A DNA stretch of 54,847 bases from a bacterium (GTDB lineage: Bacteria; UBP14; UBA6098; B30-G16), in contig JAGGRZ010000152.1 in NCBI GenBank assembly GCA_021159335.1, positions 1 to 54,847 of the forward strand. The letters are read 5' to 3'. Position numbers and translations under genes: made by a program. Position 1 is the first letter of the stretch. Every line of letters starts with the position of its first letter. Positions 30,699 to 32,958 of the stretch are shown piece by piece. Below the pieces are notes generated by a model. The model was not told the DNA's origin. It saw only the letters and a program-made list of their open reading frames with translations, and searched no databases.

Positions 30699-31907
30699 TT
30701 ATTCTATAATGTCTGTTACCACACCGGCTCCGATAGTCTTACCGCCTTCACGAATAGCGAATCTGAGCCCTTTCTCCATGGCGACAGGATAAAGGAGCTC
30801 GACTTCCATATTGACTCTATCGCCAGGCATAACCATCTCGACACCCTCTGGGAGCTTTATCGTGCCAGTTACATCGGTGGTCCTGAAGTAGAACTGTGGT
30901 CTATATCCGCTGAAGAATGGCTTGTGACGACCGCCTTCCTCCGGTTTCAGAACATAAACCTCACCCTTGAATATTCTATGCGGTGTCGTGGTTCCAGGTG
31001 CGGCGAGGACCATTCCGCGCTCAACCTCATCTTTTTCGATTCCTCTTAGAAGCACTCCGACATTGTCGCCAGCTTCTGCGTAATCAAGAACTTTTCTGAA
31101 CATCTCGAGTGATGTGGCAACAGTCTTCCTCGTTGGACCCAGCCCCACTATCTCAACCTCATCACCGGGCCGAATAACACCTCGCTCAACTCTTCCGGTA
31201 ACTACTGTTCCTCTACCTGTTATGGAGAAAATATCCTCTATAGGCATCAGGAATGGCTTGTCTTTTTCTCTCACAGGTGTCGGAATGTATTCATCTATAG
31301 CCTCGATAAGTTCGAGAATAGGCTTGAATGCAGGATGATCTATGGGTGCATTAGGGTCAAGTCCGACATTCATTGCCTCAAGGGCACTGCCTCTTATAAC
31401 CGGAACCTCATCGCCGGGATAACCATATTTGTTGAGCAGGTCTCTTACCTCCATTTCAACGAGATCAATAAGCTCTGGGTCGTCTACCATATCTGTCTTA
31501 TTAAGAAAGACGACTATAGCAGGCACATTAACCTGTCTTGCGAGGAGAATGTGCTCTCTTGTCTGAGGCATTGGACCATCGTAAGCGGACACAACGAGTA
31601 TTGCGCCGTCCATCTGGGCAGCGCCTGTTATCATATTTTTAATATAGTCAGCGTGTCCAGGGCAATCTATGTGAGCATAATGCCTTTTTTCGGTTTCGTA
31701 TTCTACATGCGCGGTATTAATGGTTATACCTCTTGCTTTTTCCTCTGGGGCGTTGTCGATGGAATCGAATGTCCTGACCTCAGCAAGGTTTTTCCTTGCC
31801 AGAACCATAGTTATAGCTGCGGTAAGGGTCGTCTTACCGTGGTCGATATGACCTATAGTGCCCACATTAACATGCGGCTTCGTCCTTACGAACTTTTCCT
31901 TAGCCAT
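30699..31907 (-). CDS. tuf: Elongation factor Tu
   Basis: The 402-residue GTPase brings aminoacyl-tRNA to the ribosome. G-domain motifs are GHIDHGKTT (near 19-27), the switch I segment [26 protein letters not shown] (near 85) and NKTD. Domains 2 and 3 follow, ending [13 protein letters not shown] and [14 protein letters not shown]. It is full length. AGGAGGT lies before the ATG. It is the first protein gene after the four-tRNA cluster and also has its own promoter candidate. Confidence 0.98.
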
Positions 31908-32004: not shown

Positions 32005-32051
32005 TAGTTTTTGTGAATTTATATGAAATTTTGTGCTTATATTCACTAAAT

Positions 32052-32124
32052 AGCCCACTCCCGGACTTGAACCGGGGACCACTTCCTTACCAAGGAAGTG
32101 CTCTACCGACTGAGCTAAGTGGGC
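32052..32124 (-). tRNA. tRNA-Thr (anticodon GGT)
   Basis: Full cloverleaf on the minus strand: acceptor GCCCACT/AGTGGGC, D-arm AGCTCAGTCGGTAGAGC, anticodon stem CTTCC/GGAAG around TTGGTAA, T-loop GGTTCAAGTCC. CCA is not encoded and the discriminator is T. It is the last tRNA before tuf, matching the position of thrT in the classic thrU-tyrU-glyT-thrT-tufB operon. Confidence 0.95.
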
Positions 32125-32207
32125 CTAAAATATTCTGAGCAAAACTATAATGCCTTATTTTTCCAATTCAAGTATTTTCTGCTTTTTAAGCCCTGAAATT
32201 TATTATA

Positions 32208-32281
32208 AGCGGGAGACGGGACTCGAACCCGCAACCCTCAGCTTGGAAGGCTGATGCTCTAGCCAATTGAGCTACTCCCGC
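32208..32281 (-). tRNA. tRNA-Gly (anticodon TCC)
   Basis: Cloverleaf on the minus strand with acceptor GCGGGAG/CTCCCGC, anticodon stem TCAGC/GCTGA around CTTCCAA, and T-loop GGTTCGAGTCC. The discriminator is T and CCA is not encoded. Its 5' end at 32281 lies one base from the inverted repeat of the inserted element. Confidence 0.95.
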
Positions 32282-32282
32282 A

Positions 32283-32321
32283 AGTTAGTTGTTAGTCAAA
32301 AGTCATAAGTCAAATGTCTAA
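32283..32321 (+). repeat. Left terminal inverted repeat with 7-base internal period
   Basis: It starts AGTTAGTTGTTAGTC at 32283 and continues as heptamers AGTCAAA, AGTCATA, AGTCAAA, TGTCTAA. It pairs with the right repeat with only a few mismatches and two gaps. The last bases reach the stop of the four-helix-bundle gene (32324). Confidence 0.75.
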
Positions 32322-32323
32322 AG

Positions 32324-32683
32324 CTAAAAATTATTTTTTAAGCTTCTTATCAAACCATTGACCATCATAATCTGTTCTAAAATTTTTGAACAGACAAGTT
32401 TAAAATCATTATCTGAAATGAAATTTAATCTTTTACATAGCTCGAAAAGCGTTTCCAGTTCATATAACGAACCCCTAGCAATGTACAGGAACTTTACGAA
32501 TTCTTTGTCGCTTCCCCGGCCGCTTCCCTCCGCAATATTAGATGGAATTGAAATAGCTGCTCTTTGAATCTGAGAAATCAAATTGAAACTCTCGCTTTTG
32601 GGGAGTTTCTCAGTCAACTTATAAGCTACTGAAACTAACTCGACCCCTTTCTGCCAAACATCCAATTTTTTGTAATTATTCAT
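32324..32683 (-). CDS. Four helix bundle protein, 23S rRNA intervening-sequence protein family
   Basis: The 119-residue protein begins MNNYKKLDVWQKGVELVSVA and carries the family hallmarks SQIQRAAISIPSNIAEGSGR (about 57-76), then FVKFLYIARGSLYELETLF. It should fold as a four-helix bundle that forms pentamers, with basic surfaces thought to bind nucleic acid. Relatives are encoded in 23S rRNA intervening sequences, in scattered chromosomal copies, and as the accessory protein Avd of diversity-generating retroelements. AAGGA lies before the ATG. It sits between tRNA-Tyr and tRNA-Gly with inverted repeats on both sides, and would be read from the tRNA promoter. Function is unknown; no reverse transcriptase or variable repeat is present. 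Confidence 0.9.
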   Translation of the reverse strand: MNNYKKLDVWQKGVELVSVAYKLTEKLPKSESFNLISQIQRAAISIPSNIAEGSGRGSDKEFVKFLYIARGSLYELETLFELCKRLNFISDNDFKLVCSKILEQIMMVNGLIRSLKNNF

Positions 32684-32695
32684 TAATCTTTCCTT

Positions 32696-32732
32696 GTTAC
32701 TTTGGACTTTTGGCTATGGACTTCTGACTAAC
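32696..32732 (-). repeat. Right terminal inverted repeat with 7-base internal period
   Basis: Read on the minus strand from the tRNA-Tyr end it runs AGTTAGTCAGAAGTCC, then heptamer-like units ending AGCCAAA and AGTCCAA. It is the inverted partner of 32283-32321. It touches the tRNA-Tyr discriminator base. Confidence 0.75.
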
Positions 32733-32816
32733 TGGTGGGGGGTGGATTCGAACCACCGAAGGCATTACGCCAGCAGATTTACAGTCTGCCCCCGTTGGCC
32801 ACTTGGGTACCCCACC
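32733..32816 (-). tRNA. tRNA-Tyr (anticodon GTA)
   Basis: An 84-base tRNA on the minus strand with long variable arm. The acceptor is GGTGGGG/CCCCACC with discriminator A. The anticodon stem GCAGA/TCTGC encloses CTGTAAA, and the T-loop is GGTTCGAATCC. CCA is not encoded. It is second in the operon, as tyrU in enterobacteria. Confidence 0.95.
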
Positions 32817-32874
32817 AGAAATTTGTAATATATCAATTCGAACTCTTTATGCAATAACCTTTCAATGAACCCCA

Positions 32875-32947
32875 AGCTGGCGGAGGGATTTGAACCCCCG
32901 ACCGGCTGATTACAAATCAGCTGCTCTACCACCTGAGCTACGCCAGC
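32875..32947 (-). tRNA. tRNA-Thr (anticodon TGT)
   Basis: Cloverleaf on the minus strand: acceptor GCTGGCG/CGCCAGC, anticodon stem GCTGA/TCAGC around TTTGTAA, T-loop GGTTCAAATCC. The discriminator is T and CCA is not encoded. It is the first gene of the tRNA-tuf operon, as thrU in E. coli. Confidence 0.95.
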
Positions 32948-32958
32948 TTCAGACTAAT

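What the first reader, a model, noticed from the sequence alone, without database searches (positions are those of the whole stretch)
32283..32732. A 23S-rRNA-IVS-like element sits inside the conserved tRNA-tuf operon
Seen: the gene order Thr(TGT)-Tyr(GTA)-Gly(TCC)-Thr(GGT)-tuf matches the classic thrU-tyrU-glyT-thrT-tufB operon. The Tyr/Gly spacer is filled exactly by a four-helix-bundle gene with inverted repeats whose outer ends abut the two tRNAs. Known: proteins of this family are encoded in intervening sequences of 23S rRNA genes, where terminal repeats form a stem cut out by RNase III. Inference: the element inserts into stable-RNA transcripts in general. In this operon RNA, a stem of some 30 base pairs would loop out the protein message and bring the tRNA ends together. 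This would extend the IVS lifestyle to tRNA operons.
Basis: partly seen in the sequence, partly recalled or inferred. Interest (0 to 1): 0.8.

Follow-up and report, generated by a model that had tools for sequence, protein, structure and literature searches.

The report
Heptamer-bracketed IVP gene in tRNA operon
A small gene, known from insertions in ribosomal RNA genes, has inserted itself between two tRNA genes; it and most of its relatives in distant bacteria are bracketed by inverted arrays of a seven-base repeat that differs from copy to copy, an apparently unreported hallmark that makes this common but unexplained gene family testable.

Summary
A PF05635 (23S_rRNA_IVP) gene fills the Tyr-Gly spacer of a Thr-Tyr-Gly-Thr-tuf operon. 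Four relatives of the same family have the operon without the gene; three have a 4-7 nt spacer.

The main result was not in the finding. The inverted repeats are arrays of a ~7-nt unit. Of 185 full-length family members, 121 have flanks more complementary to each other than 99% of cross-copy pairings; 85 of these 121 have period 7 and 15 period 8. The unit is almost always different (80 distinct of 86), yet the two arms of one copy match. Arrays are rare elsewhere and absent around small GIY-YIG genes (0/30).

Insertion in tRNA or tRNA-SRP RNA spacers recurs, at least seven lineages and nearly always sense, but most copies lie between protein genes and none of 100 scanned was in rRNA. Gene-less arrays fill neighbouring tRNA spacers or replace the gene in sister genomes. 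The protein is under purifying selection (dN/dS 0.03-0.18).

The RNase III-cut RNA stem is not supported: arm mismatches show no G:U bias (130 wobble-type vs 160 opposite). I read it as an operon-spacer element whose arms are kept complementary at DNA level and used by the protein; the last step is inferred.

The parts
32324..32683 (-). IVP gene (four helix bundle protein, 119 aa), ATG with an AAGGA-like ribosome site 5' of it
   Evidence: PF05635 E 2.9e-37, TIGR02436 E 1.7e-36; PDB relative 2gsc_A E 3.5e-23; sequence
32700..32732 (-). 5' arm: array GTTAGTC AGAAGTC CATAGCC AAAAGTC CAAAG (7-nt unit)
   Evidence: IR; lag-7 15/26 matches, 0 of 20,000 shuffles for both arms together
32282..32323 (-). 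3' arm: inverted array; read on the plus strand AAGTTAGT TGTTAGTC AAAAGTC ATAAGTC AAATGTC TAAAG; 32291-32323 pairs with the 5' arm
   Evidence: IR; lag-7 24/35 matches
32732..32817 (-). tRNA-Tyr(GTA), upstream neighbour; the last base given by ARAGORN (32732) is the first base of the 5' arm
32208..32281 (-). tRNA-Gly(TCC), downstream neighbour
32874..32948 (-). tRNA-Thr(TGT), first gene of the operon
32051..32125 (-). tRNA-Thr(GGT)
30699..31907 (-). tuf (EF-Tu, 402 aa), end of the conserved operon
   Evidence: ORF; tuf also follows the four tRNAs in four empty-site relatives

Best explanation
A ~450-bp insertion that occupies transcribed spacers: a single four-helix-bundle (IVP) gene bracketed by inverted arrays of a ~7-nt repeat. 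SHOWN: it is an insertion in this operon; family members across bacteria share the architecture; each copy has its own repeat unit that both its arms share; the arrays are specific to this gene family; the protein is under purifying selection; insertion in tRNA-operon spacers is recurrent and sense-oriented; gene-less arrays occur beside or in place of full copies. INFERRED: (1) the gene is expressed by read-through from the host operon, which favours sense insertions between co-directional genes; (2) the arms are kept alike by DNA-level copying of one arm from the other (template switching in a hairpin) plus slippage in 7-nt steps, not by selection on an RNA duplex; (3) the IVP protein, an Avd-like pentamer by homology, binds the array hairpin and helps it copy or persist, in trans also for gene-less arrays; (4) tRNA spacers are tolerant landing sites because pre-tRNA processing discards the spacer RNA.
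For: Empty sites: relatives G004, G005, G002 have the same Thr-Tyr-Gly-Thr-tuf order with 7, 6 and 4 nt between Tyr and Gly; G003 has 126 nt without the gene. Arms: own-copy inverted score median 31 against 16 across copies, 121/185 over the 99% control; period 7 or 8 in both flanks, periods 5, 6 and 10 near zero; 85 of 121 period 7, 80 distinct units of 86. Specificity: 10.7 arrays per 10 kb next to the gene, 0.9 further away in the same loci, 1 in 400 kb and 0 in 400 kb of two genomes, 0/30 around GIY-YIG genes. tRNA/SRP contexts; independent lineages. Gene-less arrays with the same unit as the neighbouring full copy and gene-less orthologous sites in the same genus. Orientation 117 sense-sense vs 6 antisense-antisense; more co-directional than ordinary genes, p = 4e-5. 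dN/dS 0.03-0.18. No G:U bias in arm mismatches, 130 vs 160. Own arms beat cross arms in 37 of 48 orthologous pairs. PDB relatives 2gsc and 2rld list five chains each.
Against: Steps 2 and 3 rest on inference. No target-site duplication could be read, and the age and route of movement are unknown. 64 of 185 copies have no inverted arms above threshold, so arms are not strictly required or decay fast. 36 copies also, or instead, have direct array matches. The window genome has a single copy and no second array with this unit. The absence of a G:U bias does not exclude an RNA function. Copies are not phylogenetically independent, so counts overstate the evidence.
Confidence: 0.5

Rival explanations
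1. IVS-type RNA element: the arms pair in the operon transcript, RNase III cuts the stem and the IVP message is released, as in 23S rRNA IVSs; selection on this RNA stem keeps the arms complementary.
For: Same protein family as 23S IVSs; fold z -3.5; sense orientation in transcribed spacers; Coxiella IVS has a 28-bp terminal stem cut by RNase III in vitro (PMC4990558).
Against: Arm mismatches show no excess of G:U-compatible over A:C-type differences on the gene strand (130 vs 160), which an RNA duplex under selection should leave. Most copies are not in stable RNAs. No excision is needed in a spacer.
Confidence: 0.25
2. MITE-like DNA element moved in trans by a transposase or recombinase encoded elsewhere; the IVP gene is cargo or an accessory factor.
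For: Gene-less arrays with the same unit in neighbouring spacers; presence/absence between sister genomes; copies on cyanobacterial plasmids between nrdB/nrdA and cas6/cas4.
Against: No conserved terminal sequence for a transposase to recognise (80 distinct units of 86); no target duplication seen; orientation is biased to sense.
Confidence: 0.15
3. Host-useful hairpins: the arrays insulate or help process polycistronic tRNA/SRP/mRNA transcripts, and the IVP protein is a host RNA-binding factor.
For: Long retention of one insertion at tRNA-Ala/SRP RNA across four families, protein under purifying selection.
Against: Close relatives do without it; patchy distribution, 22 of 119 genomes of one phylum; several paralogous copies per genome at unrelated sites.
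Confidence: 0.1

Closest known systems
23S rRNA intervening sequences with IVP/S23p ORF (Leptospira, Coxiella; PMC4990558)
   Same: Protein family, ~430-450 nt size, terminal inverted repeats.
   Different: Here between tRNA genes and not in rRNA; arms are 7-nt arrays. Whether the published rRNA stems are arrays too was not tested.
IVP ORFs in 16S/23S insertions of CPR bacteria (PMC11270868)
   Same: IVP and GIY-YIG ORFs as insertions in stable RNA genes.
   Different: That survey covered rRNA genes; in the passages read, tRNA spacers and repeat arms were not treated.
Heptamer repeats: cyanobacterial STRR, Xanthomonas GGGAATC (PMC4692102), Beggiatoaceae TAACTGA (PMC4679880)
   Same: 7-nt tandem arrays in spacers, in Xanthomonas often in inverted pairs.
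   Different: In the passages read they are not linked to a gene family; here arrays bracket IVP genes and the unit changes from copy to copy. Cyanobacterial plasmid IVP genes carry such arrays (AGTAGGG, GGGAACA).
Avd of diversity-generating retroelements
   Same: Remote homology, four-helix bundle (NF033474, 31 bits).
   Different: Far below the Avd cut-off (80 bits).

Membership tests
PF05635 / TIGR02436 (IVP, four helix bundle protein) | score over curated cut-off | tested here: met
   127.5 bits vs 33.8; 124.8 vs 24
23S rRNA IVS | lies inside an rRNA gene | tested here: not met
   lies between tRNA-Tyr and tRNA-Gly; Rfam finds only four tRNAs in the window
23S rRNA IVS | terminal inverted repeats that can form a stem | tested here: met
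   33 nt, 79% complementary, score 31 vs max 21 in control
23S rRNA IVS | excised from the transcript by RNase III | not testable with these tools
   needs RNA; G:U asymmetry gives no support
MITE / transposon | conserved termini recognised by a transposase | tested here: not met
   80 distinct units in 86 heptad copies
MITE / transposon | target-site duplication | tested here: inconclusive
   flanks of empty sites too diverged, arrays obscure the joints
DGR Avd | over the NF033474 cut-off | tested here: not met
   31.1 vs 80 bits
Heptanucleotide tandem repeats (STRR-like) | 7-nt tandem periodicity | tested here: met
   for the window, for the family

The most novel reading that the evidence does not exclude
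IVP genes define a widespread class of minimal elements, without transposase or nuclease of their own, that write copy-specific inverted heptamer arrays around themselves in operon spacers; the IVP protein is the factor that makes or maintains these arrays, and gene-less heptamer hairpins, perhaps including heptamer repeats described in cyanobacteria and Xanthomonas, are their non-autonomous products.
Probability: 0.3. Interest if true: 0.9.

Novelty: new variant of a known kind. Interest (0 to 1): 0.72.

Why it matters
IVP genes are common small unknowns, known since the 1990s from fragmented 23S rRNA, with no accepted function. A hallmark that most copies share, inverted arrays of a private 7-nt unit, separates them from ordinary genes, suggests a nucleic-acid substrate for the protein, and links them to heptamer repeats that have been over-represented in bacterial genomes without explanation. 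Recurrent insertion in tRNA and SRP spacers shows how essential RNA operons tolerate selfish DNA.

Tried and rejected
Chance repeats: rejected. Arrays as a property of any small mobile-looking gene: rejected by 0/30 GIY-YIG genes. RNA-duplex selection: looked for by G:U asymmetry, no support. Insertion mostly in rRNA: none in 100 loci scanned with Rfam. Transfer by phage: no match in 50,697 phage records; 11 viral contigs carry relatives, origin not studied. A second copy of the window's array elsewhere in its genome: apart from the element itself only two lone one-mismatch hits of the 13-mer. The neighbour-orientation bias is real but modest against ordinary genes, so I do not use it as proof of RNA-level insertion. 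The empty site for the second Thr-Tyr insertion (L009) was not found: in relative G061 the stretch shows tRNA-Thr with no tRNA-Tyr. Target-site duplications could not be read.

Full report
WHAT IS THERE. The window carries a tRNA-tuf operon on the minus strand: Thr(TGT), Tyr(GTA), Gly(TCC), Thr(GGT), tuf. The 450 bases between Tyr and Gly hold one ORF of 119 aa, a PF05635 / TIGR02436 protein, and an inverted repeat of 33 nt, 79% complementary, whose array reaches both tRNAs. The repeat is beyond chance in this window: score 31 against a maximum of 21 in 891 control pairs.

IT IS AN INSERTION. In four relatives of the same family the same four tRNAs are followed by tuf. Three have 7, 6 and 4 nt between Tyr and Gly, the fourth 126 nt without the gene. 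The window genome has one IVP gene only.

THE ARMS ARE 7-NT ARRAYS. Read in steps of seven, the 5' arm is GTTAGTC AGAAGTC CATAGCC AAAAGTC CAAAG, and the 3' arm, inverted, is AAGTTAGT TGTTAGTC AAAAGTC ATAAGTC AAATGTC TAAAG. Lag-7 identity is 15/26 and 24/35, with 0 of 20,000 shuffles as high. Among 185 full-length copies with flanks, 63 upstream and 61 downstream flanks have strong period-7 arrays and 9 and 15 period-8 arrays; periods 4-6 and 10-13 give almost none. The two flanks of one copy are complementary (median score 31) while flanks of different copies are not (median 16); 121 of 185 exceed the 99% control. Of these 121, 85 have period 7, 15 period 8 and 3 period 9, and the unit differs nearly every time, 80 distinct of 86. 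On the gene strand the 5' arm is richer in G than C in 110 of 121.

SPECIFICITY. Such arrays occur 10.7 times per 10 kb beside the gene and 0.9 times per 10 kb further off in the same loci. Two genomes sampled at 400 kb each gave one and none of period 7. Small GIY-YIG genes, which share rRNA-insertion habits (PMC11270868) and here also sit near tRNAs, gave 0 of 30. Cyanobacterial plasmids show it in named, complete sequences: a copy between ribonucleotide reductase genes of Nostoc edaphicum with AGTAGGG arrays, one between cas6 and cas4 in Pseudanabaena with AGCTAAA arrays (there in direct orientation), and one in Nostoc sp. C052 with GGGAACA arrays.

WHERE IT SITS. Besides the window, copies lie in Thr-Tyr spacers (L249, L247, L284, L009), Gly-Tyr (L258, L261), Pro-Arg (L014, L211), Arg-His (L254, L255, L210), after tRNA-Ser (L264, L277) and tRNA-Glu (L028), and between tRNA-Ala(CGC) and SRP RNA (seven genomes; SRP RNA called by Rfam in L206, L225 and L207, recognised in the others by the matching sequence). 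Nearly all are in the sense of the tRNAs; exceptions are L153 and L015. In a protein tree the seven Ala-SRP copies form one clade (97/99) spread over four families; the Thr-Tyr and Gly-Tyr copies of that phylum also group together; the window copy and L009 lie elsewhere. So the Thr-Tyr-Gly region was entered at least three times, and tRNA or SRP spacers in at least seven lineages. Most other copies lie between co-directional protein genes: 117 with both neighbours in the same sense, 6 with both opposite. Ordinary genes give 336 and 44; the excess of co-direction is significant but moderate. None of 100 loci scanned with Rfam was in rRNA.

TURNOVER. At the Ala-SRP site, one old insertion, the unit differs between families while each copy's own arms still match: L225 GGTTCAT, L206 GGTTCGT, L253 and L207 other units. 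Over orthologous sets own arms beat cross-paired arms in 37 of 48 pairs. Gene-less inverted arrays fill neighbouring tRNA spacers, often with the unit of a full copy in the same operon (L249, L247, L254, L258), and in one case with the unit of a full copy elsewhere in the same genome (L284 Tyr-Gly and L206). In one genus a site with gene and arms in G106 has arms and other filler but no gene in G131 and G173, and a site with the gene in G173 has other, gene-less arrays in G131.

PROTEIN. dN/dS between orthologues is 0.03-0.18 where it can be measured, so the protein works in the cell. Its nearest solved relatives are 2gsc (E 3.5e-23) and 2rld, each listed with five chains. A weak match to Avd, the accessory protein of diversity-generating retroelements, is below the cut-off.

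RNA OR DNA. If an RNA stem on the transcript were what selection keeps, arm differences that still allow G:U pairs should be commoner than those that give A:C. Counted on 121 copies they are not: 130 against 160. This does not exclude an RNA role but gives it no support. Known hairpin template switching (general knowledge, not tested here) would keep arms alike on the DNA, and slippage would give tandem units. I therefore favour DNA-level maintenance, with the protein as the likely helper; the protein's part is inference.

AGAINST WHAT IS KNOWN. The protein family and its place in 23S and 16S rRNA insertions are known (PMC4990558, PMC11270868). Heptamer arrays are known in cyanobacteria, Xanthomonas and Beggiatoaceae without a linked gene in the passages read (PMC4692102, PMC4679880). 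Nine searches of the open-access library found no paper that joins the two; subscription papers are not held, so priority is not settled.

Noticed in passing
L258:1144-1490, L261 and L207 (upstream of IVP): Small GIY-YIG nuclease genes sit just behind tRNA-Gly or tRNA-Ala and end with a partial copy of that tRNA's 3' part (L261, L207), as if they had inserted into the tRNA gene and rebuilt its end.
   Followed up: partly
L081:413-674 and L082:400-663: Two relatives carry, in the Gly-Thr(GGT) spacer of the same operon, a conserved 75-aa ORF (MFNQVxKEDGKWYI...) whose family was not looked up.
   Followed up: no
L092:340-9674: In genome G049 a 9.3-kb stretch with ORFs of 2062 and 749 aa separates tRNA-Tyr from tRNA-Gly in the same operon.
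   Followed up: no
L206, L225, L253, L262, L257, L207 flanks: At the tRNA-Ala/SRP RNA site each heptamer array is preceded or followed by a second, local hairpin whose sequence also changes from genome to genome.
   Followed up: no
L041 (Thr-Tyr spacer, G058), same as L096: A 147-nt tRNA spacer made of three hairpins, the middle one a heptamer-array hairpin without gene.
   Followed up: partly
L350, L354 flanks: Two GIY-YIG genes are flanked by long inverted repeats of another type (GTCATTCCGGCGGA..., ATGTCATCCCCGCG...), without 7-nt periodicity.
   Followed up: no
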